Source: Seiridium cupressi (taxonomy: Eukaryota; Ascomycota; Sordariomycetes; Amphisphaeriales; Sporocadaceae). From it: 64,000 bases of DNA. Below, piece after piece: positions 19,616 through 54,334 of the stretch (position 1 is its first letter; each line of letters starts with the position of its first letter). Made by a program: the position numbers and the translations under genes. The notes beneath the pieces are model-generated. The model was not told the origin of the DNA, did not search any database, and saw only the letters and a list, made by a program, of their open reading frames with translations. The stretch covers positions 186,001 through 250,000 of the forward strand of contig JARVKI010000047.1 of NCBI GenBank assembly GCA_036674765.1, written 5' to 3'.

Positions 19616-20752
19616 ATGCTCTTCACCATCATCATTGGCATTGCAGTTGTCGTTATTCTAGCCGTCTCCATGACTGACGTCCGGAAAATGTTTCGCGTGG
19701 TCCTCCTCGGATCACGCAATGATGCACCACGCGGTGCCGCTGGTTTTGACCCCGCCAAAGATATCCCGTCTCTGGCAGACAAGATTATCATGATCACGGG
19801 CGCCGCGGGCTTCCTCGACCGCCAGACGGCTATCGAGTTGGCTCGTTACGGCCGGCCGGCGTGCATCTACGTCGCAGACCTGCCCCGGGATGAAGCCGCC
19901 AAGAAGGCCTTAGGAAAGGAAATCATTGATGAGGCATATGGAGATCATAGCGAAACTGTTGAACCTCGCACCGAGGTTCGGTTCGTTGACCTGGATCTCG
20001 CCTCCTTGGATTCCGTCCGAGATTGCGCCGCCAACTTTGTCTTCAAGACAAGCAGCTGGACATCCTCTTCTTGAACGCAGGTATTATACGCGTCTCACCT
20101 GCAACAACAAGGGACGGCTACGAAGCTCATTTTGGCATCAACTATCTCGGCCACGCGCTCCTGGCCAGATTGCTGGCACCGTCACTGCAGCATGTTGCCG
20201 AGCGACCAGGCGCTGACGTACGTGTAGTTGTTGTCTCGAGCGAAGGACACTTGATGGCACCGAAAAGTGGCGTTGACTTCGATTCAGTAAAGAGTGATTG
20301 CGCAGGCATGGTAAGCTCTTCTCACATTGCTAATATGCGACGGAATAAATTGCTCACGGTGAATTCTTGTCTACCACTACGCAAAACGGTACGGGCAGAG
20401 TAAAGTTGCCCTGATCGGCTTGACGAAAGAGTTCTCTCGCAAGTATCCTCAATTCAAAGTTGTTGCAGTACATCCTGGGAGAATCTTGACGGGCATGGTC
20501 GAGTCATTGCGGAAAGAGAGTCTGTTGACTCGTCTAACCCTTCCCATTGCGCCATTGTTCTCCGTTCCTACCACAGTTGGAATCAGAAACCACTTGTGGG
20601 CTGCAACGAGCCCAGACGTGGTCTCCGGCATGTACTACGAGCCTGTGGGTGTACCCGGGAAGCTTTCGGCCTCGGCACAGGACGAGAAGTTTCTCAAGAG
20701 GCTCCATGAGTGGACGAGTGATGCCTTGAGTGCGGTCAAGCCGCTTGAGTGA
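19616..20752 (+). pseudogene. Second short-chain dehydrogenase, broken in several ways
   Basis: Remnant of an SDR with an N-terminal membrane segment (MLFTIIIGIAVVVILAVSM). The Rossmann motif reads TGAAGFLDRQ where TGxxxGxG is expected, so one motif glycine is replaced by Phe/Asp. Near 20033-20046 the frame shifts by one missing base: RDCAANFV is followed in another frame by QDKQLDILFLNAG. NAGIIR, INYLGHALL and VVVVSSEGH then continue. After DCAGM an intron donor (GTAAGC at 20311) is present, but no AG acceptor occurs before the catalytic YGQSK (YxxxK) segment, so splicing in frame is not possible. The frame then runs to TAG/TGA at 20752. A missing cofactor glycine, a frameshift and a lost acceptor together mark a pseudogene. 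One of them alone could be an assembly error. Confidence 0.75.
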
Positions 20753-21940: not shown

Positions 21941-23365
21941 TTAAAAAGACTGCTTTATATCAAGCTTTGGTAGGCTCCCTAATGGCTGCTCTGCACTGGA
22001 AAACAGCAGCTCTAACGCCGCATCGAGGGCACGGCCAACGCCGCGGGCTTGGGTCTCAGACACGACAGATGTCCAATAGTTCATAGAGACGGACACAAGA
22101 TCCGGCTCGTCAACAACATAGACAGAGATGGAATACTAGGGAGCGTGATATGGTTAGAGTTCTCGAATGTCGATCGGGAATTTCCGGGACAAACTTACCT
22201 CGTCAGACATGGTCCCACCTAGCTCTCCGAACACGACCGTCGAATCCTCCAACGGGCCCTGTGCCGCTACACGTTGCATGTTGAGGAAGGTGTTGAAGAG
22301 GGGCTGCGTCGACGGGAGCACATTCTGGATGTCTTCGAGCGAGCAGACCTGGTTCTTTTGGCCACAGAGTGGTTAGTAACTGGGGGGGATAACAAATGGT
22401 AGGGTTAGCGCTGAGGGGGCTCACCATCATCACGTCTGCAAAGTCGGTCTGCATGGTTTGGAGCAGGGAAGCGAGGCTCTCCTGTTTCGAGAAGCGCGCC
22501 ACGCATGGTAGTAGATTGATGAATGGACCAAAGGTCGTGTCCGCGTCAGGGACAGGCGCGTCGCGTCCCGACAGCATGTAGCCGAAGCAGACATCGTCTT
22601 TGCCAATGAAGTGCCGTAGCGCGAGAGCCCAGGCTGCCTGGAAGAGGTTTGCGGTCGTAATGCCGTGCTTTCTACAGAAGGACCGGAGCTGAAGTGTCTC
22701 GCTGAACGGGACCTCAATGCTGTCGAAGCTTGCCTCCGGTTGCTGTGGTGCAGCTTGGTTCATGGACGGGAAGTGGCAAGGGGCTATCCCGGCGAGATGT
22801 GTTCGCCAGAACCCCAGTGCTGTATCTTGGCTTTGTTCTTGAAGATGCGAGATCAAGTTCCGATAGAGAGGTGCGGGTGTCTTTGGCAAGCCGCGTGTAT
22901 AAGCAACCTGCAAGTCGCGCCAGAGAATAGACATGGAGACAGCGTCGTAAAGGATGTGGCTGAGCTGAAGCTGACAGAACAATCTCCCGGAGGCTGTTTC
23001 GATTAGGATGAGCCTATGCGGCGGCAGTTTGGCGGGTGGCATTTCCGGATGCCGTTCGAGGATTTCAGTCGGATCCGATGATTGGCTACGAGAGATCGTC
23101 ACCGGCGCATCATAATGCCTGAGTACCACTTGGTAGGCCTTGTGAGATGGCCATTCTACCGCGGGAAAGACTGTACGGAGAATTCGATGGCGCTCAACGA
23201 CCTTCTGCCAGCTGCCAGCTAGTTTCTCCAGGGATACTGTCTGCTCCGGGGAAGACGCGAATAACTCTGATACCCAACTCGAGTACCACGTGCCCTTGTG
23301 CGTTGCCTGGGCGGCCGCGATGCTTCCTTGCATAGGGGAGAGGGGGTAGATGTCTTCCACGATGG
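21941..23365 (-). other. NRPS terminal condensation domain (CT-like)
   Basis: About 430 residues after T7, starting at IYPLSPMQGSIA and running over two introns (22424-22355 and 22198-22136) to the stop at 21941. The active-site motif reads SHILYDAVS, keeping the His and Asp but with Ala in place of the final Gly. In fungi a C domain at the very end of an NRPS usually serves as the macrocyclizing release domain (CT) in place of a thioesterase. Macrocyclization here is therefore inferred from position. The protein ends a short way after the SMNYWTSVVS segment. Confidence 0.8.
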
Positions 23366-26300
23366 CGGAATCCAAGCCTACATTCGGCATGTCTTTTGGT
23401 TCCATTGGCTTCCGCCACGCGAATTTGTCCTGCTCCTCCCTGCTATCAGATGCAACAGGCTTGGAGTAGGTAGCATGAAGGGCAATATTGGCGATCGTCT
23501 TGTGCTGGAAGATGTGGCGCGCCGCCACGACGACTCCCTCGGACCGGCAGCGAGAAATAACTCGAATGGCAAGGACCGAGTCTCCACCAAGACCAAAGAA
23601 GCTCTGGTTCACACCGATGCTGTCGGCAGAGACCTGAAAAACCTCGCCCCAGACCTTCTGCATTATTTGCTCCGCCTCGGACGTTGGCTGCTCGGAGGAT
23701 ACTGCCTGCGAAGGGTCAATTAATTCTAGATATGTTGCATAGTCGATTTCCTCCAGCCATTGGTCGATTAGGTTTCTATCGCTCTTCCCAGATGCAAGAA
23801 GAGGTATACTCTCTACTGGAATGCAGAGATTCGGCACCATATGGCGTGGCAGATTGGCCGCTGCAAAAGACTGAATGTCGGTAACCTGCTCGAGCAGGTT
23901 TGACCGCGGGTTGCCGCGCGCAAGGCGGAGAGATGAATTCGAGTCTTGGGCACCGTTTGAACCATCTTTCAGCGAGACAACAGCGACGAGGCGCTGCTTG
24001 AGCCTGCCGTCCCGCGGAACAGCCGCGATGGTGCTCCTCACGAGAGGGTTCAGGGAGATCTGATACTCGACTTCATCGAGGTCGACGTGCTGGACGTCTT
24101 GGCTGTTCTTGCGCCGTACGAAGCTGATGGTTCCGTCGGGATTCCATCGAGCAAGATCTCCAGTCTTGTAGAGACGACCCCAGCTAGTGCGATCTATCAC
24201 TTCTCTCGTCCAGAGTGGTGGCATGATGAAGGAGGCGGTGGTCATCTCGGGGTTATTCAGATAGCCGCGGCCCACCAGGGGACCTTCGATGATTAGCTCG
24301 CCCACGGCCCCTATTGGTACCAGTCTTTCGTGATTCTCCGGTTCCACTATCCACAGCGTTGAACGGACAGGTCGTCCGATTCCGGCTCCTTGGTTTGCCG
24401 AATTTAACCTCTCGGTCAATGAGCATATGATAGCGCACTCGCATGGGCCATAGGTGTTGAACAGGTCAACCTTGTCTACCCATCTCTTAACAATATCATC
24501 GGCGAGCAGCTCGCCTCCAACCACCACAGTCTCGAGGGACGGCACGTCCTGTGGCTCGAGCGTACGGAGAATGGTTGGTGTGAGGTCAATCCAGTTCACT
24601 CCGAGATCTGAAATTGCGCCGGCCAAGTTGCCAAGACGGTCTTTCTCGGAGATGATACAAACGCAAGCTCCATGCATCAGCGTTAAAATAGTTTCCTCAA
24701 TACTAACATCATATGCATATGAGGCGAAGTGTCCGACGCGTGATGCGGTTGTCAGCCCTTGCAGCGGTAGTGTAGTAGACATGGCGTACAGGTTTCGATG
24801 CTCTAGGATGATCCCCTTTGGACTTCCCGTACTCCCCGAGGTATAAACAATAAAAGCAGCATTTTCTGGCCTCACCGCGGTACATAGGACGCCACTGATA
24901 CTTGGTAGGCTGCGTAGCCAGCTAGCATCGACAAGCTGCGTACGCTGCCCAAGCTCGGCTATACGACCCGCCTGCGCTCTCGATGTCAAAACTATAGAGG
25001 CCTGGACGTCGTTGACTATCTTCTGTAGTGTTTGCAGGGGTTGCGAATGATCAAGCGCGACGCAAGCGGCGCCCGCTTTGAGCGTTCCCAGCATCGCAAC
25101 CACAGCCCATAGGGACTTCTCGAAGCAGAAAAGGACAATGGACTCGGGACCGACGCCATCTTCAACCAGGTAGCGAGCGACCTGGCTCGCGAAGCCGTCC
25201 AACTCAAGGTATGTCAGAGAGCCCTCTTCAGAAACCACCGCCGGCCTATGGGGTTGGGTGGTCACCTGCTGTTCGATGGCTTCGTGCAAGCAAAGGGCCT
25301 CAATTTGAGTGGGGACAGGGTTCCATTGAGAAAACTGAGCCACGTCCCTTGGGCTGACCAGCGACAGGTCGGCCATAGGCAGTAAGGGATCCTCCATCAG
25401 GCGGTCTAGCGTGTGGACGATAGCATCGGCAATGCTGGAGGCCTGAATCGGGGAGATAAGAGCGGTTGAGTAGTTGAGCATCAGGTGGATCTTGGTTCTG
25501 GCCTCGAGAACATCGACAGTAATATCATACTGTAGAGCAATCAGTTAACTATCTGGTAAAATGGGTCGCTACTACTAACCTCGATCGAACCGTGAGTGGA
25601 TTGTGGCTGGAGATGTATACTCGCAGTACCTATCTGCTCCGCAGATGAAGCAGCACTCTGCACATTCACGATGGTGTTGAAAAGTGCATCTTGTCCCATA
25701 CCGATGGCATGCAATGTTTCGTTCAACGGACATTGTTGGTGGGCCAGACTCTGAATATACGCCTTGCGGATTTCTTTCAATATATCCAGGAGTGAGGCGG
25801 ACCTGGAAAGCATCGGCCGACACACTAGCATGTTGATAAGTGGTCCCACGATATTGTGAACATCGGCAATGGGGGCATCCCGCCCGGATGCGAGATATCC
25901 AAAGCACACCGAGTCGGTACCAAGATATACGCGGAGGACGATGGACCATACCGTCTTGAAGATATCCGCTACGGACACCTCGTGTTCTCTGCAGAAGCGA
26001 TGCATCGCGGCGGCACGGTCGTCGGTTATGATGTGTTCAATGCAGAGAAGCTCGGCCGACGTGCCTGTGGTTGTGTTCAGAGTCGGCAACTGGCATGGCT
26101 GAACCCCAGCCAAATAGTTCTTCCAAAAGTTAATTGCGGCGTCGGCCGGCTGGCTGCGGATGTAGGCGATGAAGTCACTGTACAGAGGAGGATCTTGAGG
26201 GGGGAGCCTCTCGTCATATGCTTGGATCACATCTCTGCAGAGCAGTTCCATGGAAAACCCGTCGTCTAGCACGTGGCTGATAGCGAGTTTACAATACACT

Positions 26301-29300
26301 TCTCCAGAATGTAGGCGGCAGATGGATATGCGGTACGGCAATCCCTCTTCGTCGTAAGTGTTAGTTTCCGCGTCGTCAACGAACTCGTTCAGAGACTCGC
26401 ACTCCCTCATGTGTATGGGGACCGAGACTTCTTTCGCCACGACTTGGACAAAGTTCACACGGCCCAGGCCCGCTTCGATAAAGATGGAGCGCATAATTTG
26501 GTGTCTTTGCGCCATCTCTCTCCAGGCACTGGCGAGCTGGTCCACGTCAACTGCATCGGAACCTTGAGGCAGAACTCTCCAGACAGATCGGATCCTGTAG
26601 TGGCTGGGGTTCTTGGCTTGGCTGATCAGCATGCCTTCCTGCATAGGCGAACAAGGAAACGCGTTCTCGATTTCGGTTGTACCCGTTAGTCCCAGGCGAG
26701 AAGTGCAGATCTGGATAAAACTATGGAGTGCCTCTCCCGCCACTGGCAAAAGGACGAATGGGCCTTCCTTCCGGACGTGTTTAACAACGGAGCCTGCCTT
26801 CACAGCGGCCTCAGCGAGACGATCGATAGTTCTTAACCTTAGCAAGTCTTGTACCAAGATGTTTATGCCAAGGGCTCGAGATCGGGAGACAGCTTTCATC
26901 GCCGAGATGGAATCACCACCCAGCCCGAGGAAGGGTCGGTCAATGCCGATGGAGGCAGCGTCCACGTGCAGAACCTCGGCCCATACCTGCTGCAGTGCCG
27001 CCTCGATATCGTTGGTGGGCATCCGAGAAGCGGTCCCAGCGTTCGCCACGAGAGCCGAGATAAGTTGTTGTGTTTCATGATCCATCGTCTCTATCCAGGC
27101 CCAAATGGCCTTCCTATCGAGCTTCCCAGACGTGAGTTGCGGAATTTGTTCCACGACAATCCAGCTAGTCGGGACCATGTGTCTTGGTAAGCTCGTCTCG
27201 AGTTTGAGTCGAATCTCCGCAAGCCGCTTGGCCACAATTTCCTTATCACCGAGACCGACCATGTCAATACGTCGTCCATGCGGTGGGTGCTGGGGTTTGA
27301 CGTCGCGCAGTGAGATGACAGCGATTAAGCGCTTCCGGAGAGGGCCTTCTCCTGGGACCTGAGCAAGGCCATGCTGGATGAATGGGATGCGCGCAAGCTG
27401 ATGTTCAATATCCTCGAGCTCGATGCGGTGGCCATGGACCTTGACCTGAGTGTCCTTTCGGCAAACGAAAGTGAAGGTACCGTCTGCGTTAGCACGAACC
27501 AGGTCGCCAGTCTTGTAGAATCGGCCACGGTCAGAACTAGCCCATGCTGGCGAAGTGATGAATGCCGCGTCGGTCTTCGCGTCGTCGTTGAGGTATCCTC
27601 GTGCCATTGCATTACCGCCGATGACCAGTTCACCAGGCACGCCAATAGGACAGAGGAGATTGTGGTTCTGAGAGTCTACCACCCATATCGAGCAGGCGAG
27701 TTTCGAGCCGACGTTGGAGGGATGGGCGCTAGCCTTCACACCAACACGAGCGGTGGACCAAACTGTGCACTCGGCTGGTCCGTAGCCGTTGACCAAGCAC
27801 GCTTTCGGCGCCCAAGAGAAAAAGTTGTCGTAGGTTGCCATCTCACCGGACATGATGAGAGTCTTCACAGACGGCACCTCGTGTGGCTGAAGAAGTGCCG
27901 CTACAGTCGGCGTGAGGACCAATACATCCACCTGCATCTCGTTGACAGCCTCCGCAAGGCGACCAATCCTATCTGACTCGGAAGGGACACAGATGCACCC
28001 GCCGACCATCAGCGTCGTGAATACCTCTGCGATGCTCAGATCGTACGTGTAGGCTGAGAATTGTAGCACCCGGGATCCGCGGACCATCCCGAAGCTAGGA
28101 GCATGCACGCTTACACTGGTGCAGTATGCGCTGTGTTCAAGCACGATTCCCTTGGGCACACCCGTGCTTCCGGATGTAAAGATAACAAAGGCAGGATTGC
28201 TCGGTCCAGCTGATCCTAGTTCGATCTTGCTATAAGCCGGATCTCTCGCCTGACTCGGAAGGTCTCCATCCAGGGAGACGACATGAGGCACGACGCTGGC
28301 GAACAGATCGCGGTATTGGTGTTGTGCCAGTATCACTTTTGCATTGCAATTTTGAATGATGCTGTGGAGCCGACTCGGAGGATGGGTGGGATCAAGAGCA
28401 ACACAGGCACCGCCCGCCTTGAGAATGGCAAGCATTGCGACCGGTGTCCAGGGCGATTTTTCAAAGCAGTACGGAACGAGCGTTTCGGGCCCAACTCCCA
28501 ACGCGACCAGATACTGGGCCAGAGAGGTGCTCAGGGAATCCAGTTCGCCGTATGTGAACGTGGTAGAGGACTCCGTCGTGCAGACTGCGGGAGCGTCAGG
28601 GTTCAAGCGTGCCTGTCGACTGAAAGTCTCGTGGATGCAATCCGAGACTGAATCGGTAACACTGCTATTAAAAGACCTATATAGACCTGCATCAAAGCTG
28701 TCCAGGAAGTTGACTTCCTTGATGGTCTTGTTAGGGTTCGCTAGAATAGAGGCAATGGCAGCCGTTAGAGTGCGGGACAGGCTCATTGCGTGCGCTTCTG
28801 ATATGCACCGATCCCAGAAGCTCAAGGAAATCTTGATTCTGTCTGAATCTAGGATACCGAGCATTATATCGTACTACAAAAGCAAAGACGAAATGTTATT
28901 ATTGTCACAAGCATGGATGGTTCACTGATAGTGGGTGGGAAGCTCACCTCGTTGGGGTCTTGCCCTGTTTCGTCCTCGAAAACAATACTAGATGGGTGTT
29001 GCTTGTCCCTATTGCCTTGCTTCTGCATGTTGACGACGGTGTTGAAAAGCGGAGTGCCTCCTAGATTCAAGGCATGCTGGATTTTTCCCAGCGAGCAATG
29101 CTGGTATGGAAGGCTTTGGACGAAGTCCTCTTGCATCTTTTCTATCAGATCCAGGACGACGATACTAGGGTCTACCTCAACCCTGCGAATGAGCATTGTA
29201 ATGAGTGGTCCAACGATCTTGTCGACATTGGCAATTGGTATGTCTCGGCCGGAGGCCAGGTAGCCAAAGCACACCTCTGAAGTATCGGCTCCCAGGAAGC

Positions 29301-32300
29301 ATCTAAGGACCAGAGCCCAAGCTGCACTCATGAAGTTTGCAATTGTGGTCCCATGTTGTTGGCAGAAGCGATGCAGTTCATCATTCTGAGCACCCTGCAG
29401 CTCCACCTCAATGGTTTTGAATGTCGACGCATCAGTTGACGTCTCGTTAATCGCAGGGAAAATGCACGGCGTCAAGGATCCGAGATTCTCTTTCCAGAAT
29501 TTGACACCTTCATCCTCCGGCTGTTCCTCCTGCAAATAGGTCATGAAATCTCTGTAGGACGGCCTGGGACCCGATAGACTGTCTCCATATGCTTCTTCCA
29601 GGTCGTTGACAAGGATACTTGTCGACATGCCATCAATGAGCGCATGACTAATATCCATCCTGAAATAAATTTCACCCCCAGCCACCTCGCATATCGTGAA
29701 GGAGTAGGGAAGCCGGTATGGTTCTCTGGGTGCTGATCTCTCCTCGGCCTTGAACGCGTTTAAGTTCTCATGCTGGACATAAAATATTGGCGGCTTAACC
29801 TCCTTCAGAACGACCTGCACGAAAGTGGCTTGGTCCTGGTTGGCCTGGACAATGTGTGTTCTGAGGATATCGTGTCTGTCCAGTACCTGCTCACAGGCAT
29901 CCTGTAGCTTCTTCAGGTCAATGCGTTGTCCTGAGTTGCTGACTATCTTCCACACTGCTTGTACGTCGTAAAGACCGTCAGCTCGCAGTTGGCTAAGCAG
30001 GATGCCCTGCTGCATCGGCGAGCACGGGTGAATGCTCTCGATCTTGCTGGAGTCGGACAGTCCGAGCTTGTGGATACAGCTGTCGACCAGTCGGTCCAAA
30101 GCATGGTAATCCTGTAGACCCAGTAGCGGGTAGGTGTGCAAAGTTGGCATCGGTGCCCGCCGCGCCAAATCCTTGATACCAGCAACAGCTAAGCGCTCGC
30201 ACTCTTGGGCCCATGTTCGGATCTTGTCTTGCCTGGCCATGTTGGATGAGTACTCGATGCTGCAATGCAAACGGCCCTCCTCCACAGTCGCGGATATGTC
30301 GAACAGAGCCGATCTAGTGCAGCTCAAGTCCGCGTTCGATACCGGAGGCGGCGCAAGTCGGTAGAAACACCCTTCTTTAGCAGCGTCTAGCTGTTGGTGC
30401 ACGCCAAGGTAGTTGAAAAGAATCTCCATCGCCTCGTGGCCTGCGAATTGCACTGCCCCTTCTTGGCTGAGATATCGTGATGTGAAATATGGCCAGCCCT
30501 TTCCAGGGATCCGACGACGTGTATCCTTCACGTGACGAAGAACTCGGAATAAGTCACCGTCGGAGTTGCCGCTCGGACTGGATTCACCTGGTGTGTTAAT
30601 ATTGGCGTGGATCGGATACATTATCGTAAACCAGCCGACGGTATCTGAAATGCCAATGCCCTCAAGCCATGATTCACGTCCATGCCCTTCGGAGAACAAA
30701 GTGACGGCTCGGCGATCCTCGAATGTGCTTTGGAATGATGCGATGATTATAGCCATGATAATCTCTACGGGTTCTGTCTGCAGAGGACTGTTGGCATCCC
30801 CTAGGAGCAGTGAAGTGGAATCCTGATCAAGTGCGAAGCGTGCTATGGTTGCCGTCTCGAAAGTGTTTGATTGCTCGCTTACTCCCCAATAGCGGAATGC
30901 GTTATAGTTTGGTGCTGCAGAGGGTAAGACCTTGGCATGAGCCAGTTTGTTCTGGGCGTACTCATGCTGCGCCAGAGTCCATGTCTGGAATGGAAGCGCC
31001 TTCGGGCCGAGAGATCTGTGCTGCAAGAGGCTTGATAGATCGTCGAATATGCTTCGCCACGAAACCAAGTCAACGGCGAGATGGTGGATAACCAGATATA
31101 GGAATTGCTCGTCATTGTTACCCTGGACTTTGACGAAATCGGCAGAGAGGAGCGGCCCATTTTCGATGTCTAGGCTGCCTTGGCTTTCAGCAAAAGCGGA
31201 GTTGGCTTCCTCAAGAGACCCGGTTGTGAATGCTGTGAACCGCCAAGCTTCTGGAGAAGGGCCAACGAGGTGCTGAGACCATGCGCCCTTTGCATCGTGT
31301 GAGAAGCGTGTCCGTAGCATAGAATGGCGCTCGACGAGGGCATCCAAAGCACTTTTCACGTGTTCTCTATCAAATGAAAGGTTCATCTTCACAAGATTGC
31401 TCTGATTGTAGTGGTTCTGACCCCTGGGAAACTGCTGGAAGAACATCTGCTGGATCGGTGATAGTGGGGTATTTGTGTATAAACTCTCCTCGCGGTCTAA
31501 AAGTGAGCGGACAGCAAGATCCACTTGCTTGCCTTCATGTGTGATTAGCGGTGCAGTAGCGGAAATTGTACGATGGCGGAGAATGTCATGTACTGAGAGC
31601 CGTAGACCCTGGCTTCGCAGGCGCGAGGCAACCTGCATGGCCGAGATGGAGTCGCCTCCGAGGCTAAAGAAGGCTTGGTTCGCATCGATTGTCGCTATGG
31701 GTATGTTTAGAACCGAAGACCATACGGTAGCCAGTTCTACCTCGAGGTCAGTCAGAGGCACCGTCGATTTGGCGACGTCCCCGAGCGCGAGAACAGCTCG
31801 GGCGGTGCTGGCATCCATGGCTTCAAGCCAGCCAAGTACCTGGCGACGGTTGAGCTTTCCATTAGCTGTCACCGGCATTCCTTCGACGGCAATCCATGCT
31901 CTAGGCATCATGTAAGACGGGACACGATCTTGCAAGGCAACGCGGGTGTCGGCAATACGAGGTACAATTTCGTCCGACGAGATTATCTCCAACTCCCGTG
32001 TCTGTAGGGTTGGGCTATCCCACAGAGAAAAGACCATGACTAGTTTGTCCTTCCAGTATCCGCTTGATGGGACCAAGGCCGCGGCGTGACGGCAGCTCTG
32101 ACCGGTAACATGATACTCAATCTCCTGGAGGTCGACTCGCTGGCCATGGATCTTGACTTGAGAATCCTTCCTACCAATACTCAATATGTTGCCATCGAGG
32201 CCGTATCTAGCCATATCTCCCGTTTTGTAGAATCGGCGACCCGTGCCAAGGTTGGGTACACGCACGGACTTTGTCCAAGCAGGATCGAGCACAAATGCGG

Positions 32301-44300: not shown

Positions 44301-47300
44301 GCTCCTTCACGCAAAGACTTATTCGATCCTGGTGCGCCATCTTCGAGGACCAGGAAAATTTGAACGCCAATGAGCCTTGCTCGATGGCTGATGACAGCTC
44401 GAACAGGGCGACACGAGGGCAGGTACTGGAAACCTCTTCTGGGATCTGGATGTCAGAGACCCGCTGGAAGGCAGAGTCTTCTCGTTCAAGCTGTTGCCAT
44501 CCACCTTGGTGGTTGTAGAGAAGCTCCATCTCGCCCAAGAGTTCACTTGCGTCTGTACCGCCGATCGGGTACTGGCCTAGGAGGAAACCTCTCCCTGTAT
44601 CTGGCAGGGTCCGTCTTGCATCCTTGACAGACCGTACGATATCAGCAAGATCAGAGCAAAGACTCAAATCAGCAACTATCGCTGCAATTGTCGTGAACCA
44701 GCCTACGGTTTGAGACAAATCCAGTTCATCTGTCCAGGTCTGTCGGCCGTGCCCCTCGGTGAACACAGCGGGCGGCTCCCGATCTTCGAAGGTCCTTTTG
44801 AAGGCTAAGATGATAGCTGCCATAAATATCTCCACAGGCTCTGTTCGTAGCGGCTCATTGGCTGGTCCAAGTAGAATGGAGGTCGATTCTGCACCCAGAG
44901 TGAACGAGGAGCTGACCACCGTGGAATAGGTGTTGAGCTTGCGCTCAGTCAACCAATACCCGCGTTTTGGCTGCGGTGGGTGACGTAAAAGAGCAGCTCC
45001 AGGGTCAGAATTTTCATAATGCACTCGGTGTAGATGTACCCAAGCTTGGAAGGGGGGCGCACCGCTATTCGGCAAATTTTGGCATCGGAGAAGCTCATTC
45101 AGCTCATGTAGAATAACTCTCCAGGAAACAAAGTCTACTACCAAGTGGTGTGCCAGAAGATATAACAACTGCGGTTGGTCAGGTAGCGTGACTAGATCTA
45201 CCGAGAACAGTGGACCCCGCTGAATGTTGAGTGACTTGTGGCTCGCCGTAAGCAGTGGTGCTATTTCTTCTTGGCGGCTCGCAGAAGATTCCATGAAGCG
45301 CCATGAGTTGTCATTCGTGGTCTTTTGAGACCACTGCCGAGAGGAATCTCGATTAAAGCGAGCGCGAAGCATGGAGTGCCTCGAAACAATTGTAGATATT
45401 GCCTGTTGGAGTTGTTTCGGAGACACGGAAAGCTTGAGCCTCAATAAGAAGCCTTGATTATAGTGGTCCTCGCCATCCGGCATCATTTCGAAGAAGAATC
45501 TCTGAATAGGTGCCAGAGGGAACTCCTTGTTGTGCTCCTCAAACTGGGCCGTCATTGATGCCAAGTTTCCCACGTCTCCGAGGACGAACTTACACCGGGG
45601 TGCTATCTCGGCAATTATACGGTACCGAAGGACATCGTGGACAGAGGCCCTGATTCCATTGGCCCTGGCCTGCGAAACGACCTGCATTGCCAGAATGGAG
45701 TCACCTCCCAGGTTGAAGAAGGGCTTGTGGATGCCAATGCTCTCAGCCGGGATGTTAAGAACCCGACTCCAGATCATGGAAAGAGCTTGCTGCATAGGGT
45801 CATCAATCCTCTCTTCGGCTTTTTCGTAACCAATGGCCTGGAAATCAGTCACAGCCAAGAGGTCGGAGCCTGCCATGTCCGCAAGCCACCGTCCAACCCG
45901 CAGTCGATCCAGCTTTCCAGACGGCAATAATGGCATCTCAGGGACAGCTATCCACAATGTTGGGACCATGTAGGCCATTAAGGATGATTCTAGTGCGTCC
46001 CTCAATGCGCAGACTTGTCCGGCTGCTGTCGCTCTTGCTCCAGCTGGGACGAGCTTGAGGGACTCGCCTGTTTGAGATGTAGGCATAGAGGTTTTCAGGG
46101 AGACCACGGCTGTCAGCTTTCCCTTTAAATGACCGGTCTTGGGAATTGCCACAATTGCTTGTGTCACAGAGGCCTGGCGGGAGAGATGATGCTCAATCTC
46201 TCCGAGTTCGACACGTTGTCCATGTACCTTGATCTGGTTGTCCATGCGTCCGACGAACTTGAGAGAGCCATCGTTTCTTTGCCGAACCAAATCGCCGGTC
46301 CTGTAGAAATCATAGTGCCCACCGGGACGATGGATGTCTAGATCCACGAGCCAGTCAGGGCGCGATATGAAGGCAGCCTGGGTCTTGGCAGGATTGTTCA
46401 GGTAGCCCTGGGCCACATTGGGACCTTCGATCACTAGTTCGCCAACGGCACCAAGCGGAGACAGCGTATTGTAGTCTTTGGGACTGACCACCCAAGCTCT
46501 TGACCCGATAGCTTTGCCTAGAACGTCGTTTGCCCGCCCAAGCTCAGTGGAGAACTCATTCGTTACGCATACGACGCACGTTTCCGTGGGGCCGTAGCCG
46601 TTTATCAGCCTGACATGATCACACCAGGTCTCTATATTGTCCGCGCCGACCGCCTCACCGCCCATGACAACCGTGCGTACATTGGGGACATCAGCGGGAC
46701 CAAAGAGCCGGAGAAAGGTAGGGGTAAGTACGACCCAGTTCACTGCGAGACGGTTGATGATGCCCACGGCGTTGTCAAGCCGGTCTTGTTCCGATGGAAT
46801 GCAAATGCATCCTCCGTGTATCAATACTGTAAAGGTCTCGGCTATCATGGCGTCAAAGGTGTAGGCAGCGAATTGGAAAGCCCGGCTCTCCCTAGCGATG
46901 CCCATTCCTTTCCCATGAGCCCACATGGAGCTGCACATTGCTCGGTGTGAGATAACGACACCCTTAGGGTTTCCGGTAGAACCGGATGTGAACAACACGT
47001 AAGCCACTTCTTCGGGCCTGACGACAGGTAGGGACCTCGCATCCCTGTCATCATTGACAGCAAGAGATTTGCTGCTCACATTGATGGCGGCCATGTATGG
47101 AAACCTAGACTTGATTGTGCCGTGCGTTATGTCGTCGACCAAGATAATCCTTGCGCTGGCTTCGTCCATGATGGTCGCCATGCGGCTAGCAGGACTGGCA
47201 GGATCCAATGGTATGAAAGCGGCGCCAGCCTTCATGATGCCAATCATGGCGATTATGGCCCATGGTGACTTATTCAAGCAAAATGGAACCATATCCAGAG

Positions 47301-50300
47301 GGCCAATTCCGATTGTGTTCAGTTGGAGGGCGAGACGTGTTGATAGCTGACTCATTTGACGATAGGTGAGCTCCATGTCAAGCGAGTATATTGCGGTTGC
47401 CTCCGGAAATCTTGATACTTCCTCCTCAATCAAATCATGGGCACATTCGTCGCTGACCGGGGGCGGAGCATCGTTCCATGACATTATGCGATCCATATTT
47501 GCTTCACTGGACGCGTCCAGCTCAGCAAGCCGCTTGTGGGGGCTGTCTATTACTTGATCGAGGATCTTTAAGAGCGTTGCAACGACGTTCCGGGCATCTT
47601 CATTGGATAAGCAGCTTGTGGAGTACGTCAAGTTTCCGAGAACCTTGTCTTCTGTTTCTTCGACGTTGAGGATCACACTGTACTCAGTAGGATCTCGGAC
47701 ATCAAGGATGTCTACGGATACGCCAGAGGACGATTTTGACCGAGGGCGCCTCTGAACATCGACCATAGTGTTGAATAGGTTGCCGCTGATCTGCAATTCA
47801 TGCTGGAGGTGGGCAAGTGAGCAGTGCTGGTAGGCCATGCTCTCAGTCATGCTGTTCTGACTTTGCTGGGTAAGCTCCAGCAAAGTTCGTGACCCACTCA
47901 GCTGCAACCTGCCAACCATGACGCTGATATATGGTCCTATCGCAGTCTCGATGCCCGGAAGTAAAGCATCGCGACCGGAAGATAGGTACCCAAACGCGAC
48001 ATCATCACGATCCAGGTATACGGACAGGACCAAGGCCCATAAGGTCTGGAAGAGATTGGCCGCGGTGATATCATGCCTTGCACAGAAGCTGTGAATGTCA
48101 CTTCTGAAGGTGATTTCTTCGTGTAGCACTTGGTTCGCATTGCCAGGGGCATTAACTGCCAGCACCGGGAACAAGCAGGGGTCGATCCCTGTCAGGAATC
48201 CACTCCAGTAGGAAATGTTATCCGCCTGCGAGAGGCTCCCCAAGAACGAAATAAAATCGCGGAATGGCGGCCCTCGCACCTGCAGCGACGGATCTGAGCA
48301 CAGGCGTGAAATTTCCCGTAGAAGCAGCGAGCTTGATGTGCCGTCGGTAATAGCGTGACTCATGGCCAGCTTGACGCAAACAGAGCCGGAGCCGTCTTCC
48401 CATATCTCCATACCGTGAGGAAGCGGGCCGTTCGCACTCAAGCTCAGCTCCCTAGCCATAAAATCATCCTGTGATATATCATTCACCTTGCGAACAACAG
48501 CATCGACCTCCTTCAGGACGACTTGGGTAAACAAGCCCCGCCCGGTGGCATCCTCGACAAATACGGTACGGAGGATTGGAGCTTGGTGGACGACTTTGCG
48601 CCACGCTCGCTCTAGAATTTCAGCGTCAATGAGCTGGCCGTCAGGCACTGACCGCACCTTGAACGTATACTGAACCTGATACAGCTTTTCATTCCGAGAC
48701 CGGCTGACGAGAATAGCATCTTGCATCGGCGAGCATGGGTACACGTCCTCGACGTTGGCAGGGCTGATGGCCAGCTGCTCAGCAGCCTGAGACTCGAGGA
48801 ACTCGCTCAGGCCGGCGTCCCCGCCAAAGTCCATGAGCGGGAAGTCGCTCACGGTGGGGGCTGGTTCCGTGTTCGGCAGCATCCGGGCACAGAGTTCCAA
48901 CGCACACCGGCATTCCGTAGCCCAACGCGCAATGTCCGGGCTGCGTCTCAGGCCCTTGGGGAATTCGAGACTGAAATGCAACTTGCCCATGTCGACTACG
49001 ACGGATATCTCAAAAAGCTGTGGCCGGTGCATCTCGGGGGACTTGTCGACGACCGCTACACGGCCCGGCTCGACACGTCGCAAGACAGAGTCCGATCGCT
49101 CGAGTTGCTGGAAAACACCCAAGTAATTCACGAGTATTTCCATTGACTCCTTTGTTGCGAGACTAGGACCGCCGAGATAGCGGGCTGAGAAGTAGTCGAA
49201 GCCCTTGTGGGGTAAGCTCCGCACTGCGTCTTTGGTGCTTCGAACGCTGTCCACGATCGAGCGGTTGCTCGAGGCGAGAGGAACGCAGAGAGGCGTCATT
49301 GTTGTGAACCAGCCGACGGTGCCCGACAGGTCAATTTCATCAGACCATGCCCTGCGACCGTGGCCTTCAAAGTGAATCGGTGGAAGCGAACGGTCCGTGA
49401 AAACACACGAGAAGGAGTGGATGATAGAGGCAAGTATCAGCTCGTTGGTTTCCGTGTTGAAAGGCACGTGTGCAGGCCCCAGAAGCCGGTCTGTGACATT
49501 CTTATCCAGCGACCAAGAGACGGTTGTCAGATCGCGGTATTTCAGCTCCTCCGCATTTATGCCCCAGTACTGGTCGAAATTGGCTTTTGGCACAGTATAG
49601 GGCAGAACCTTGGTTACATCAAGACCTCGAGCGTAATCCGCCTGAACCTGCGACCACCTGCCGAACGTCAACGACTCGCTCGGCCTCAGTGGTTCATTCT
49701 TCAGATGGTTCTCAATGTCCTGTAGCATAATCCTAAAGGACACCAGATCCGATACCAGATGGTGGGCAACGATGAAAAGATATTTGTCGCTGTCCGAGGT
49801 CTCGAGTAGCTCGGCAGCGAGGATTGGGCCTCGGGTGATGTCCAAGCTGCGCTGACTAGACTCAATTATATCCGAGGCATCCTCCAGCCTGCCAACTTTA
49901 TGTTTATTATATGTGAAAGAAGAATGGACCTCGTCGGTGGTGAGCTGCTGCCAGCTCCCGTGCTCATCCTTGAGGAAACGAGCGCGGAGCATGGAATGTC
50001 TGCGGACGAGCGCTTCAAAAGCAGCTCCTAGGTCCTGTAGAGGAACAGAACCCGCAAGCTGTACGAGGAAGCTCTGATTGTAGTAGTTCTGCCCATCTGG
50101 TGCCGAGTTGAAATGCAGCCGCTGGATTGGGGTGAGAGGAAACGGCGTTCTGGGCTCGTCCTCGTGCTGCCCATTCAGCTGTCCGGCTCCATGGTGCAAT
50201 CCCGGCCCCAGCCATTTGCAGCGCTTTGCGATCTCGATGATGGTCTTGTGGTGCAGAATATCGCGTACCGTGACGGCCATGCCGCGCCCACGGACGCGAG

Positions 50301-52326
50301 CAACCACCTGCATGGCCGAGATGGAATCGCCACCCAGGCTGTTGAACGTTGCTGCCAGGTCCACCGACTGGATGTCCATGTTCAGAACGTGAGTCCACAA
50401 CGATTGGAGCAGTCCCTCGGCGTCTGTGCTCGGCACAAATGTACCCTTGCCCTTCTCGTGGACCACGGCTTGGGCGCCGTCCGTAGGACTTAGCGCTTCA
50501 AGCCAAGCGAGGAATCGCTTGCGATCCAGCTTGCCAGACGACAGAAGTGGGAATCGGTCGACGACTACCCACTGTCTCGGCATCATCCATTCCGGAACCT
50601 GGTTCTCAAGCACGCCCCGTAGGGTATTGACCGCTCCCTGGGACAAGTCCGGATGCACGCTGCTCAAGGCTCTCAGGTACTGGTCTCCGCGAATAGGTTC
50701 CTCGAGCTCGGAAAGGGAGAACGCCACAACAAGATGGCCAGCCCAAGGTCCAATTTTAGGCATGGCCACTGCCGCGTGCCTCACGATGTCTGCAGATAAT
50801 AGGTGGTGCTCAATCTCGCCAAGCTCCACTCTCTGTCCATTTACCTTGACCTGGAAATCCTTGCGTGTGACGTAGTGGAAGACACCATGCTCGTCTTGGC
50901 GCACAAGATCTCCAGTCCTGTACATACGTCTGGGATAATGCCCAGAGGAAAGAGACCACAGCGGGTCAGTGATGAAGGAGCTCTTGGTTCTGGCCTTGTC
51001 ACCAAGATACCCCTCGGCGAGGTTGTGGCCCTCAATTAGGAGCTCACCCACGGTACCCGGGCTCACCAGCTCGTTGGGGTTTTCAGGGTCAGCCACCCAC
51101 AAGCAGCAGCCGGTAGGGCGGCCGATTATACCACCAGGGGCATTCGAATCCAGCGGGCGCGTAGTAGCCGAGATAACTGAGCACTCAGCGGGGCCGTAGC
51201 TGACAATGAGCTGGACTTTGGAGACCCAGGCGGTGATAATATCACCACCTATCGCTTCGCCCCCGACGACGAGAGTCTTCAAGCCAGGAACAGCGTGTGG
51301 CTGCAAGAGACGTATGACGGTTGGCGTCAACTTGGCCCAGTTGACATGCAGGCGGTTGATGGCGGCTTCTATGTCATTATGGCGCTCATCTTCAGATGGG
51401 ACGCAGATGCAACCGCCGTAGATGAGAGTAGTCAGAATCTCCTGGATGCTGACATCAAAGGTATACGACGCAAACTGCAGAACTCGGGAGCTGCTTTTCA
51501 TATCCGTAGCAGGTCCATGGGCGTGGGCGCTGGTGCAGAATGCGCGATGCTGGATTTTGATGCCCTTCGGTTTGCCCGTTGTGCCCGAGGTGAAGGCCAC
51601 ATAGGCCAGATCGAAGGGGCTACACTCTACCGGGCTTGAGTAGCTAGCTCCCGCGTCGGATTCCACGTGGATGATACTCTCCACGTCCATCTGGATGATC
51701 TCTATGACGCTTTTGGCGAAGAAGCAGGCAAACCTGGGCTCTGTAACAACCACCTGGGCGTTGGTATCCTGGATAATAACCTCCCGCCGCCCTTCTGGGA
51801 ACTGCGGATCGATAGCGGCAAAGGCGGCGCCTGCTTTTAAAATCGCCAGGATGGCGACAACAGTGACCATGGACTTTTCGAAGCAGAACGGCACGACAGA
51901 GCCCTGACCGACGCCCAGGCCTCGCAGCTGGCGAGCGACCGCAGACGCTTTAGCATCGAGTTGCTCGTAAGTGAGACTGCCCTCCCAGGAAGTCACCGCA
52001 GGCGCCTGGGGCGAGGAGATGGCTTGAGTATGAATGAGATCATGCACACAGCGATCCACCGCATCGGGCAAGCTGCGAGGATGCTTCTGCTGGACCGAGG
52101 CATGGCCCTCGCTACTGCGAGCACTCTGGCCCGGAGAGCTTCGACCCGAGGACTGCGGCTTGCTGCTTTCCGTGGATCCATCGAGGAGTGAATTGATTTC
52201 GGGCAGGCCGCTGTCACTTGAAGGGGCCGACGAGCTCGACGGTGTTGATAGTAATGGCATGACGAGCCCAGTAGCGTTGATGGCGTGGTCTCCATCGCCG
52301 GCAGTGTTTGTTGTATCACTCTTCAT
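21941..52326 (-). CDS. Heptamodular non-ribosomal peptide synthetase, about 9,976 aa
   Basis: Multimodular cytosolic enzyme that activates, loads, epimerizes and condenses seven amino acids. Eight exons: 52326-43072, 43010-38400, 38319-33661, 33603-28948, 28873-25580, 25529-22425, 22354-22199, 22135-21941; all are phase 0 and together in frame. Domain order is A1-T1-E1-C1-A2-T2-E2-C2-A3-T3-E3-C3-A4-T4-E4-C4-A5-T5-E5-C5-A6-T6-C6-A7-T7-C7. All seven carrier domains keep the phosphopantetheine serine (LGGDS), and all A domains keep the GK(L/S)(D/N)R lysine. All five E domains keep HHLxxDxxS and EGHGR...TVGWFT. There is no starter C, methyltransferase, thioesterase or reductase, so the terminal C domain is expected to release and cyclise the product. 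The start is the first ATG (MKSDTTNTAGDG), followed by a Ser-rich leader. For exon 2 the acceptor AAG before TACGAT is preferred over a CAG 12 bases upstream, because it restores the E|YDIT junction and leaves normal distance from the GTTAAC branch site. Confidence 0.96.
23450..26695 (-). other. NRPS module 7: C6-A7-T7 (no E domain)
   Basis: C6 starts at AFPCSPMQEGML, has SHVLDDGFS, and is split by the 50-base intron 25579-25530. It follows a module without E, so it should accept an L donor. A7 has YTSGSTGSPKG and a variant A10 motif, ASGKSDRN, with the catalytic lysine kept; its hand-aligned code is DVEDVGTIIK. T7 has GLGGDSVLAIR. Residue 7 should be L or achiral. Confidence 0.85.
26800..30055 (-). 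other. NRPS module 6: C5-A6-T6 (no E domain)
   Basis: C5 starts at IHPCSPMQQGIL, has SHALIDGMS, and is split by the 74-base intron 28947-28874. A6 has FTSGSTGVPKG and TSGKLDRK; its hand-aligned code is DLAVISGVWK, the most different of the seven. T6 (GLGGDSISAMK) is followed within about 90 residues by C6, with no epimerization domain between. Residue 6 should stay L or be achiral. Confidence 0.85.
30115..34765 (-). other. NRPS module 5: C4-A5-T5-E5
   Basis: C4 starts at IYPCSPLQEGVL, has NHALIDGTS, and is split by the 57-base intron 33660-33604. A5 has FTSGSTGTPKG and NGKLNRRQ; its hand-aligned code is DVEDVGTIVK, one position away from A7. T5 has SLGGDSISAMQ. E5 has IHHLAVDLVSW and EGHGRESW...ISDTVGWFT. 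Predicted residue 5 is D; it is the last epimerized position. Confidence 0.85.
34845..39515 (-). other. NRPS module 4: C3-A4-T4-E4
   Basis: C3 starts at IYPCSPMQRGIL, has SHAISDGTS, and is split by the 80-base intron 38399-38320. A4 has FTSGSTGVPKG and NGKLNRRE; its hand-aligned code is DVEHVGTISK. T4 has GLGGDSISAIQ. E4 has AHHLVIDLVSW and EGHGREAW. Predicted residue 4 is D. Confidence 0.85.
39575..44154 (-). other. NRPS module 3: C2-A3-T3-E3
   Basis: C2 starts at ILPCSPMQEGIL, has NHAIIDGTA, and is split by the 61-base intron 43071-43011. A3 has FTSGSTGVPKG and NGKLNR; its hand-aligned code is DIAYCGTVTK. T3 has SLGGDSISAMQ. E3 has IHHLVVDLVSW and EGHGRQPW...ISRTVGWFT. Predicted residue 3 is D. 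Module limits are approximate. Confidence 0.85.
44227..48774 (-). other. NRPS module 2: C1-A2-T2-E2
   Basis: C1 begins at VYPCSPMQDAIL and has SHAITDGTS as its active-site motif. It takes a D-residue donor from T1. A2 (~1628-2145) has FTSGSTGNPKG and PSGKLDR; its hand-aligned code is DAAVVGGVVK. The T2 serine is residue 2210. E2 (~2268-2700) keeps AHHLVVDFVSW and EGHGRQTW but is divergent later (LPDTGRGFLLGQY and LLYNHQGGW instead of the LPGKGWPYFT and LFNYLGQYQ of E3-E5). C1 is the only condensation domain here without the conserved intron at its end. Confidence 0.85.
48862..52074 (-). other. NRPS module 1: A1-T1-E1
   Basis: Initiation module; limits are approximate. A1 is at residues ~85-605, with core motif FTSGTTGKPKG and ending SSGKLDRK. 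T1 has its serine at residue 668 (codon 50325-50323). E1 covers ~725-1155 with AHHLVSDLVSF and EGHGRRAW. A hand-aligned specificity code for A1 (ten positions, GrsA numbering) is DVQKVGSVIK. No known substrate could be matched to this code from memory. The presence of E1 means the first residue should be presented as D, made on the carrier and not supplied by a racemase. Confidence 0.85.
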
Positions 52327-53182
52327 CTTGGAAGTTCTTTTCACAACACACTGTCTTTTCAAGCTATCTTTCGTGCTCTATCTTTATGGTTTCGTGTTTA
52401 CTATCCAGCATTGGATCTTCGCGAGTCTAATAGTCCTTTCGGTCCTGACGAGGAGCCTATTTTTCTCTACGTGCATGCTCTCTTACAACTGCATAGAGTA
52501 TGAATATTACGAGGATAACCCCTTACTAACAGAGACTGGGATCCTGAGCCAAATCCACTTCTGTTCTTTCCTAGATGTTGCATTAGTGTTCTTTCCGGTA
52601 TACACGAGGGTGAGTCTGATCTGTTGGCATACGCCACCGGCTGAAGGGTTCCGAAGGTATCCTCGTCAAATTATACTTTCCAAGGATGAATGAAATAACG
52701 AACCAATTTCGGTGTGCGCCTCAGGCTTGCAGACTCCTAGCGTAATCCTGCATAGCTTCATCGTGGGCCTTGCCCGCATAATTCACGGGGCAGGTGTTCG
52801 CTTGCGGATCTATCTTTCGGTACGATGCAATCCCGTTGCGTACTATACTCTAAACCACACGTCAGCACAGAAGAACCTCCGACAGTGGAGCTGCAGCCGA
52901 GGTACAATATGAGTAGCTAGTAGTGAAATGGTTTGTACTCCCAACACAAGACAATGTACTTGTTTGTACCCGAATTGGTCCTATCTCACAGGGTATTGTT
53001 CCTTCGCAACAACAGTGGTAGTATCACCGGTGTAGGCATACGTCATTTCTTCTGCTATTAGGAGATTGGATATTACAATCGATGTCCACACATAGCCATG
53101 TGATAATGGTCTTGGTAAGTTGAGAAAACTACAGCCTTTTACACTCAGAAGAAAAGTCTTACCATCAAAATCTATCCTGATC
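52327..53182. promoter_or_regulatory. Shared 856-bp divergent region of NRPS and dioxygenase
   Basis: The NRPS (-) and the dioxygenase (+) start on opposite sides of this interval. No other gene is supported inside it. Divergent start sites allow co-regulation, but I cannot point to a specific operator with confidence. Confidence 0.5.
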
Positions 53183-54334
53183 ATGGCCTTCCAGATATCC
53201 CAAAGCCCACCGGATCCTCCCTCAGTACGGGACATCGCAGCCGAAGGGAAACCTGTGGTTTCTGCCACCCTGCCCGTCTTGTCTCTGGGCCGTCTCAGAG
53301 CTGGTGACGCAGCAGAGAACGCAAAGCTGCTGGAAGCGTGCGACACCTATGGGTTCTTCTACCTTGACCTGAGCCCATCTCCGGAACTTCTTGCTGACTG
53401 GGTGGCAATGCTGAGCTTCGCCGAGAATTACTTTGGGCAGCCCATCGACGACAAGATGAAAGACTCGTGCGGCAGTGACACTAATGGGTACGATTCATTG
53501 CCATCACAAGAGGTGTGAAACTTGGGTACGATGGCTCACTGACTCTCGATAGATATGAGGCTGTTGGCACGTCGGCGGGGGCTACCCTAACCGAGGTCGA
53601 TGCGTATGAATCGCTCAAGGTAGGAGAAGGAGCTCTCAGAAACGCATATCTGGTGACTTACAAAATTTCAGATCTCAGAGGCAGAGATGCGGGGCGGCAA
53701 GGTTGCCGTGTCAAGCCCCCTTGTGCATGAACACTCAGAGCTTTTCTTCCGATTCATTCGTTCCGCCCGCGGCATTGCGATGATGCTGCTGGAGCGCCTC
53801 TCAGACAAACTGGGCCAGACAGGCCTCAGCCGGCTCGAGAACTACCACGCCGAGGACAAACCGTCTTTGAGCACCCTTTCCATGTTCAGATACCCCAAAC
53901 ACCAGCCGGGAGCGTCTGGGGTCGGGCACAACAAACACACGGACCTTGGCACCTTCACCTTCCTGCTCGCGCGCCAGTGGGGTCTCCAGGTGCTCTCGCC
54001 GGACACGGACTCATGGGCTTTTGTGGCGCCACGCCCCAACCACGCGCTTATCAACGTCGGGGACAGCTTGCGCTTTATCTCAGGCTTTCGCCTGGCCTCG
54101 GTCGTCCATCGCGTGCTGCCTGTGCAGGAGACGCAACACGAGGACCGCTACAGCATCGCCTATTTCCTGCGCATGTCCAACGACGTGGAATACCGCGACG
54201 GCAGCGGCGAGCTGTGGTCGGCCCAGAAGTGGCATGACTTCAAGTTTGAGACCTTTCGGTCGCCCCTGGGATCTGACATGAGCCTCCAGGCCCTGACTGG
54301 GGGCATGGAGAAGGACGACAGGCTGGTAGTTTAG
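53183..54334 (+). CDS. 2-oxoglutarate/Fe(II) dioxygenase, IPNS-like, 344 aa
   Basis: Non-haem iron oxygenase of the isopenicillin-N-synthase-like fold; such enzymes hydroxylate, desaturate or cyclise small molecules using 2-oxoglutarate and oxygen. Exons are 53183-53487, 53553-53619 and 53672-54334, introns 65 and 52 bases, total 1035 bases in frame. The N-terminal DIOX_N part has ACDTYGFFYLDL. The C-terminal barrel has the iron ligands His213 and Asp215 (HTDLG) and His270 (VVHRV), plus the 2-oxoglutarate-binding RYS (283-285). All are intact. The ATG at 53183 is preferred over an upstream one (53120), because family members begin with a short leader before VLSLGRL. It starts 856 bases from the NRPS start in the opposite direction, the best candidate for a peptide-tailoring step. 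The substrate is not known. Confidence 0.9.

What the first reader, a model, noticed from the sequence alone, without database searches (positions are those of the whole stretch)
21941..54334. Heptamodular NRPS cluster with an unnamed heptapeptide product
One gene of about 9,976 residues carries seven A, seven T, five E and seven C domains with no thioesterase, and a divergent 2OG dioxygenase starts 856 bases away. Seven-module fungal NRPSs that make cyclic peptides are known (unguisin synthetase is one, from memory). I cannot match this exact architecture, with E in the first module and in modules 2-5, to a named product.
Basis: partly seen in the sequence, partly recalled or inferred. Interest (0 to 1): 0.85.

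Follow-up and report, generated by a model that had tools for sequence, protein, structure and literature searches.

The report
Seven-module fungal peptide assembly line
A cypress-canker fungus carries one intact giant gene for an enzyme that should build a small ring-shaped peptide with five mirror-image amino acids; its product is not known, and relatives in other fungi have shorter versions of the same assembly line.

Summary
One intact minus-strand gene (52326-21941, 8 exons, 7 phase-0 introns, 9,976 aa) encodes (A-T-E-C)x5-(A-T-C)x2 with a terminal C domain and no thioesterase found; a 344-aa 2OG dioxygenase starts 856 bases away on the other strand. The window is from Seiridium cupressi: the dioxygenase is letter-identical to that species' database protein, whose contig length (333,582) equals that of the window's contig. 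No characterised orthologue was found. Unguisin synthetase differs (no E in modules 1 and 3). The gene belongs to a clade without named product: a six-module relative in Xylariaceae sp. FL0804 (same codes in modules 1-3, no module 4) and five-module relatives in Aspergillus stella-maris, Trichoderma and Conoideocrella (they start at C1 and seem to pair a module-3-type A with a module-4-type C; in the last two the E domains are dead or gone). Most likely product: a cyclic heptapeptide, D at 1-5, L at 6-7. Residues cannot be read reliably from fungal codes. It is a new member of a known kind; the 5/6/7-module series is the more interesting part. The search returned no protein above 7,995 aa, so longer orthologues may exist unseen, and the serinocyclin synthetase could not be compared.

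The parts
21941..52326 (-). NRPS gene, 9,976 aa; exons 52326-43072, 43010-38400, 38319-33661, 33603-28948, 28873-25580, 25529-22425, 22354-22199, 22135-21941
   Evidence: gene model; Pfam; PF00668 scan
47485..52086 (-). module 1: A1-T1-E1-C1 (E1 48895-50142, C1 47485-48753); code DVQKVGSVIK
42822..47484 (-). module 2: A2-T2-E2-C2 (E2 44239-45528, C2 from 44142); code DAAVVGGVVK; intron in C2
38122..42821 (-). module 3: A3-T3-E3-C3 (E3 39579-40895, C3 from 39482); code DIAYCGTVTK; intron in C3
33403..38121 (-). module 4: A4-T4-E4-C4 (E4 34855-36186, C4 from 34749); code DVEHVGTISK; no counterpart in the Xylariaceae FL0804 protein; intron in C4
28673..33402 (-). module 5: A5-T5-E5-C5 (E5 30190-31470, C5 from 30036); code DVEDVGTIVK; intron in C5
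25338..28672 (-). module 6: A6-T6-C6, no E; code DLAVISGVWK; intron in C6
21941..25337 (-). module 7: A7-T7-C7; C7 is the last domain (putative cyclising C, motif SHILYDA); code DVEDVGTIIK; two introns in C7
53183..54334 (+). 2OG-Fe(II) dioxygenase, 344 aa, 3 exons (53183-53487, 53553-53619, 53672-54334); identical to P0198 of Seiridium cupressi
52327..53182 (.). 856-base divergent intergenic region between the NRPS and dioxygenase start codons

Best explanation
The gene encodes a collinear fungal NRPS of Seiridium cupressi. Each A domain activates one alpha-amino acid and loads it on its T domain; the five E domains turn residues 1-5 into the D form; C1-C6 make six peptide bonds (C1-C5 with D donors); the terminal C7 cyclises and releases the chain. 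Expected product: cyclo(D1-D2-D3-D4-D5-L6-L7), possibly hydroxylated by the adjacent 2OG dioxygenase. Shown here: gene structure, domain order, presence of the E active-site motifs, domain-by-domain kinship with lines of five and six modules. Inferred: cyclisation, the D/L pattern, use of each module once, the role of the dioxygenase. Unknown: residue identities. The Glu/Asp pockets of A5 and A7 resemble, from memory, bacterial codes for basic residues; I give that about 0.3.
For: Gene and domain order. E motifs HHxxxD, EGHGR and NYxG or NHxG at all five E domains: (E1 reads HHLVSDLVSF, slightly off the usual form). Terminal C and no TE; a branch with support 100 parts C7 and the relatives' terminal C domains from the 30 non-terminal C rows. 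All seven A pockets carry Asp at the first code position. A collinear six-module single-chain relative, P0001 (7,879 aa). Identical codes in modules 1-3 in both species. Dioxygenase with PF14226 and PF03171; its FL0804 counterpart P0205 lies on a contig of the same length (5,554,875) as P0001.
Against: No expression data or chemistry. Module reuse or skipping cannot be seen in sequence. Fungal codes predict substrates poorly (stated in PMC10896222, passages). In Conoideocrella the one listed 2OG homologue (QQS21_006418) is on a contig of another length than the NRPS QQS21_000322, so the pairing is not general. The five-module relatives start with C1 and no loading module, so module 1 is not needed in every member. 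Codes of modules 6 and 7 differ between the window and FL0804.
Confidence: 0.7

Rival explanations
1. It is a serinocyclin synthetase (the cyclic heptapeptide of Metarhizium), or makes a close analogue.
For: Seven modules for a heptapeptide; a 2OG dioxygenase could make hydroxylated residues; a 'serinocyclin, 100%' antiSMASH call is reported in Nigrospora musae, a fungus that I recall as fairly close to Seiridium (PMC13027451, passages), and four matches of at least 75% in Trichoderma (PMC10512312, passages).
Against: Serinocyclin A holds three Ser, Hyp, beta-Ala, Acc and HyLys. Three alike Ser codes are not seen, and all seven pockets keep the Asp that binds an alpha-amino group, which beta-Ala pockets are expected to lack (recalled; codes). 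I take such percentages as counts of matching genes (recalled), not as evidence of orthology. MaNPS1 itself could not be compared.
Confidence: 0.1
2. It makes a linear or otherwise non-heptameric peptide: one module is reused or skipped, or C7 releases by another route.
For: Reuse is known in fungal NRPSs (fusahexin, PMC10967133, passages); C7 differs from the other C domains (SHILYDA).
Against: All seven T domains keep LGGDS and all seven C domains keep the second His of the C motif; C7-type terminal domains are kept in the five relatives compared.
Confidence: 0.2
3. It is an unguisin-type synthetase.
For: Heptamodular, terminal C, D-rich product class.
Against: UngA modules 1 and 3 lack E (PMC10896222, passages); here modules 1-5 have E and 6-7 lack it.
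Confidence: 0.02

Closest known systems
Hypothetical protein GGR56DRAFT_680719 of Xylariaceae sp. FL0804 (P0001)
   Same: Collinear, same N-terminal A-T-E, same codes in modules 1-3, terminal C; A domains 58-63% identical in modules 1-3
   Different: Six modules: module 4 has no counterpart; A6/A7 only 47/42% identical and with other codes; no product named
Five-module NRPSs of Aspergillus stella-maris (P0004), Trichoderma (P0028, P0052) and Conoideocrella (P0021)
   Same: Modules 2, 5, 6 and 7 have counterparts in the A tree (all four proteins) and in the C tree (P0004, P0021, P0028); terminal C shared
   Different: Start with C1, no A1-T1-E1; one module seems to combine a module-3-type A with a module-4-type C; in Trichoderma and Conoideocrella E domains lack HHxxxD or are gone
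Unguisin synthetase UngA/UgsA (Aspergillus)
   Same: Seven modules, terminal C, cyclic D-rich heptapeptide (PMC10896222, PMC12113358, passages)
   Different: E pattern; D-Ala start from a racemase; GABA in module 7
Serinocyclin synthetase MaNPS1 (Metarhizium; MIBiG BGC0001240)
   Same: Product is a cyclic heptapeptide with hydroxylated residues (the gene name is recalled)
   Different: Sequence could not be compared here; residue set does not fit the codes read
Fusahexin synthetase NRPS4 (Fusarium)
   Same: Fungal multimodular NRPS making a cyclic peptide, with ABC and MFS transporter genes in the cluster (PMC10967133, passages)
   Different: Five modules, last module used twice

Membership tests
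Fungal multimodular NRPS | Repeated A-T-C modules with intact core motifs in one chain | tested here: met
Fungal multimodular NRPS | Release by a terminal (cyclising) C domain instead of TE | tested here: inconclusive
   Terminal C present, no TE found, parted from other C domains with support 100; cyclisation itself not testable
Unguisin synthetase (UngA) | Seven modules with no E in modules 1 and 3 | tested here: not met
   E in modules 1-5 against PMC10896222
Unguisin synthetase (UngA) | Alanine racemase and hydrolase in the cluster | tested here: inconclusive
   No racemase and no peptidase-type hydrolase among the flanking fragments scanned; only selected fragments were scanned, and in A. 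candidus the racemase lies outside the cluster (PMC12113358, section title)
Serinocyclin synthetase (MaNPS1) | Orthology to MaNPS1 over the modules | not testable with these tools
   No protein named as Metarhizium among the 120 listed hits or the 120; no returned protein exceeds 7,995 aa
Serinocyclin synthetase (MaNPS1) | A beta-Ala module whose pocket lacks the first Asp, and three Ser modules with like codes | tested here: inconclusive
   All seven codes begin with D and no three agree, though A4, A5 and A7 are similar; the rule for beta-Ala is recalled
N-methylated cyclic heptapeptide synthetases (cordyheptapeptide, ternatin, scytalidamide; N-methylation recalled) | N-methyltransferase domains in the NRPS | tested here: not met
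   Only three Pfam families, none a methyltransferase, in 9,860 of 9,976 residues
2OG-Fe(II) dioxygenase (isopenicillin-N-synthase-like) | DIOX_N plus 2OG-FeII_Oxy domains | tested here: met
   the matches among solved structures are diverse 2OG enzymes, none diagnostic (46 sequences)

The most novel reading that the evidence does not exclude
The Seiridium gene preserves a fuller form of one orthologous assembly line, and its relatives are natural deletion products of it: FL0804 lost A4-T4-E4-C4; the Aspergillus/Hypocreales lines lost the block between A3 and C4, fusing a module-3-type A with a module-4-type C, and lost A1-T1-E1, leaving an orphan C1; Thozetella lost module 3; and Trichoderma and Conoideocrella then killed the E domains. 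It would be a ready series showing which junctions nature cuts to resize and re-configure a peptide ring.
Probability: 0.35. Interest if true: 0.6.

Novelty: new member of a known kind. Interest (0 to 1): 0.42.

Why it matters
A complete, apparently intact assembly line without a known product in a tree-canker fungus is a concrete target for finding a new D-rich cyclic peptide. Lines of five, six and seven modules with domain-by-domain kinship, some with dead E domains, offer natural examples of how module number and stereochemistry change, which is hard to achieve in engineered NRPSs.

Tried and rejected
Unguisin-type synthetase: rejected on E pattern. N-methylated heptapeptide synthetases: no methyltransferase domain. 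A split into several genes: frames and splice sites are collinear through all introns, and the relatives P0001 (six modules) and P0004 (five) are single long chains too. A recent tandem duplication of a module: the most alike A domains, A3/A4 and A4/A5, are only 55% identical, about as far apart as A4 and A5 from the FL0804 counterpart at 57%.

Led nowhere: searching the paper library for six code strings, five of them from the window in full or in part (0 papers); 'heptamodular' plus fungal terms (6 papers, none in listing a fungal heptamodular NRPS); papers on a Seiridium NRPS (none of the 15 listed holds the word Seiridium; one of 12 listed names S. cupressi); that review, read in passages (PMC8067579), gives butenolides, a macrolide and sesquiterpenes for Seiridium, and no peptide in those passages. 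MaNPS1 architecture: nothing useful. Structure prediction was not run: I judged that it would not identify the substrates.

Limits: the database search listed 120 of 838 and 120 of 765 hits; no returned protein exceeds 7,995 aa although the length window reached 10,500, so full-length heptamodular orthologues may exist unseen. P0001 and P0157 are public gene models with pieces missing (E hits in P0001 and the first A of P0157 are cut), so a 'missing module' could in part be annotation; losing a whole module of about 4.7 kb that way is less likely. Rows dropped: A pieces of 400 residues or less and C and E pieces of 300 or less, which left out the first A of P0157, P0144 and P0164; the trees use 18-19 chosen A rows, that also 19 chosen C rows. 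The grouping that sets the five-module A with A3 has support 93/89 and 96/95, and setting it with W_A4 is not rejected (p-AU 0.078; 0.105 with P0157 added). The pairing of W_A4 with Thozetella's A is not shown either (not in the best tree, not rejected, p-AU 0.348). The C grouping with C4 is firmer (98/96; the alternative with C3 rejected, p-AU 0.016). These groups were named after the first trees had been seen.
Full report
What is there. The window is positions 186001-250000 of contig C47 of a 45.4-Mb assembly in 228 contigs. The contig is 333,582 bases long. The dioxygenase beside the NRPS, as I spliced it (344 aa), is letter for letter the database protein P0198 of Seiridium cupressi (compared), whose longest contig is also 333,582 bases. 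The window is therefore from S. cupressi (Sporocadaceae, Amphisphaeriales).

The gene. On the minus strand one gene runs from 52326 to 21941 with eight exons and seven phase-0 GT-AG introns and encodes 9,976 residues without an internal stop. Pfam (6 of 8 exons, 9,860 residues) sees only A, T and C-type domains. Of 68 PF00668 matches genome-wide, 14 lie in this gene: 12 main ones and two short pieces. Motifs separate the 12 into seven C and five E domains, with seven A and seven T: (A-T-E-C)x5-(A-T-C)x2. The five E domains have HHxxxD, EGHGR and the NYxG or NHxG motif. The last domain is a C domain with SHILYDA; no TE was found. Six of the seven C domains carry an intron at the same place, after the Glu of ..E|YDI or its variants, as expected if modules share descent. 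The divergent dioxygenase begins 856 bases away.

Pockets. Reading the ten-residue code by motif (positions in gramicidin synthetase numbering recalled, not computed from a structure; the tenth residue, K, assumed) gives A1 DVQKVGSVIK, A2 DAAVVGGVVK, A3 DIAYCGTVTK, A4 DVEHVGTISK, A5 DVEDVGTIVK, A6 DLAVISGVWK, A7 DVEDVGTIIK. All begin with Asp, as for alpha-amino acids. The six strings searched, which cover A1-A5 and A7 but not A6, are in no paper of the library. Fungal codes are poor predictors (PMC10896222, passages), so I do not assign residues; the two acidic pockets at 5 and 7 recall bacterial pockets for basic residues.

Relatives. A search with exon 1 (838 hits, 120 listed) gives one outstanding match: P0001, a hypothetical protein of Xylariaceae sp. 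FL0804, 52% identical over 78% of the query; the other 119 listed are at 38% or less. It is collinear but has six modules: A1-A3 are 58-63% identical to the window's and have identical codes, then comes a module of the A5 type, then modules 6 and 7 (47 and 42% in A). A search with module 6 (765 hits, 120 listed) and the domain comparison bring in a second group at 50-52% identity in that module: Trichoderma guizhouense P0028, T. harzianum P0052, Conoideocrella luteorostrata P0021 and Aspergillus stella-maris P0004. These four are five-module chains that begin with a C1-type domain and lack A1-T1-E1; three more Trichoderma models (P0143, P0144, P0164; 51-52%) are shorter. Thozetella sp. P0157 (45%) is a shorter model that begins in an E-like remnant.

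Domain trees. In the A tree, A2, A6 and A7 fall into clades with their positional counterparts; the window's A1 groups with FL0804's A1 alone; A3, A4 and A5 form one larger clade. FL0804's fourth A belongs with A5 (96/91, 92/89), so module 4 is what it lacks. The five-module proteins' second A groups with A3 (96/95, 93/89; grouping it with A4 is not rejected, p-AU 0.078) and keeps nearly the same code (DMAYCGTVA or DMAYCGTIA against DIAYCGTVT), but the C domain after it groups with C4, not C3 (98/96; the alternative rejected at p-AU 0.016). That pattern fits loss, or gain, of a block between A3 and C4 rather than of a whole module. Thozetella's A before its C4-type domain is nearest to A4 (61%) and does not belong with A3 (p-AU 0.006), though a clade of it with A4 is not shown. 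The groups were named after seeing the first trees, so these p-values are somewhat flattering.

Stereochemistry. In A. stella-maris all three E domains keep HHxxxD; in Conoideocrella and T. guizhouense the module-5 E remnant has lost the second His, the module-2 remnant lacks that stretch, and no E was detected in the module between C2 and C4; P0052 likewise shows no HHxxxD motif. So these members of the clade have probably stopped epimerising at positions where Seiridium still does.

Surroundings. Left of the NRPS on the plus strand are pieces of a P450 (17577-19209), a short-chain dehydrogenase (about 19990-20749, below Pfam's cut-off), an FAD-oxidase piece (14916-15530, below cut-off) and a SnoaL-like protein (13651-14124); further left a P-type ATPase (about 7228-9538, minus) and a VLRF1-type gene (3-1763, minus). 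Right of the dioxygenase come a weak MFS piece (58857-59342, minus, below cut-off) and an ABC transporter (weak TMD0 piece at 60778-61482; ATPase domain in 62343-63104; further membrane and ATPase domains in L009 324-1546); beyond it a purine gene (GARS-AIRS, L009 4990-7287) probably marks the end. Which of these belong to the pathway is not shown. The dioxygenase has many homologues (313 hits, 120 listed); its FL0804 counterpart P0205 (61%) is on a contig of the same length as P0001's, a weak sign of linkage, while the one listed for Conoideocrella is on a contig of another length.

Verdict. This is a real, apparently intact, uncharacterised heptamodular synthetase and most likely makes a cyclic heptapeptide with D residues at 1-5. 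It is a new member of a known kind. It is not an unguisin synthetase; the serinocyclin synthetase could not be compared and is unlikely on composition. That I found nothing in print on this synthetase rests, in an open-licence library only. The more unusual aspect is the set of related lines with five, six and seven modules.

Papers: passages only were read of PMC13027451, PMC11457142, PMC12113358, PMC10512312, PMC6150023, PMC5159617, PMC5088523, PMC10896222, PMC10967133 and PMC8067579; part 1 of 2 of the text of PMC12352038, which gives 10 NRPS clusters in its text and 14 in its table for Conoideocrella and, in the part seen, does not describe this one. The rest were search listings.

Noticed in passing
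G000:C7:464864-489522 (same genome, outside the window): Ten of the 68 Condensation matches lie in about 25 kb with open frames of 4,190 and 3,694 aa: another very large NRPS gene in the same fungus.
   Followed up: no
window 13651-20749: SnoaL-like, FAD-oxidase, P450 and short-chain dehydrogenase pieces on the plus strand, ending about 1.2 kb from the NRPS stop (two of the four families below Pfam's cut-off); they could be a separate small cluster.
   Followed up: partly
P0021, P0028, P0052 (Conoideocrella, Trichoderma): Five-module NRPSs that start with a C domain (HHGVSDA motif) without a loading module and carry dead E remnants; either fed in trans or relics of a lost first module.
   Followed up: partly
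window 60778-64000 and L009 1-1546: ABC transporter close to the NRPS, a plausible exporter.
   Followed up: partly
window 43071-22136: Introns at the same place in six of seven C domains; only C1 lacks it.
   Followed up: partly
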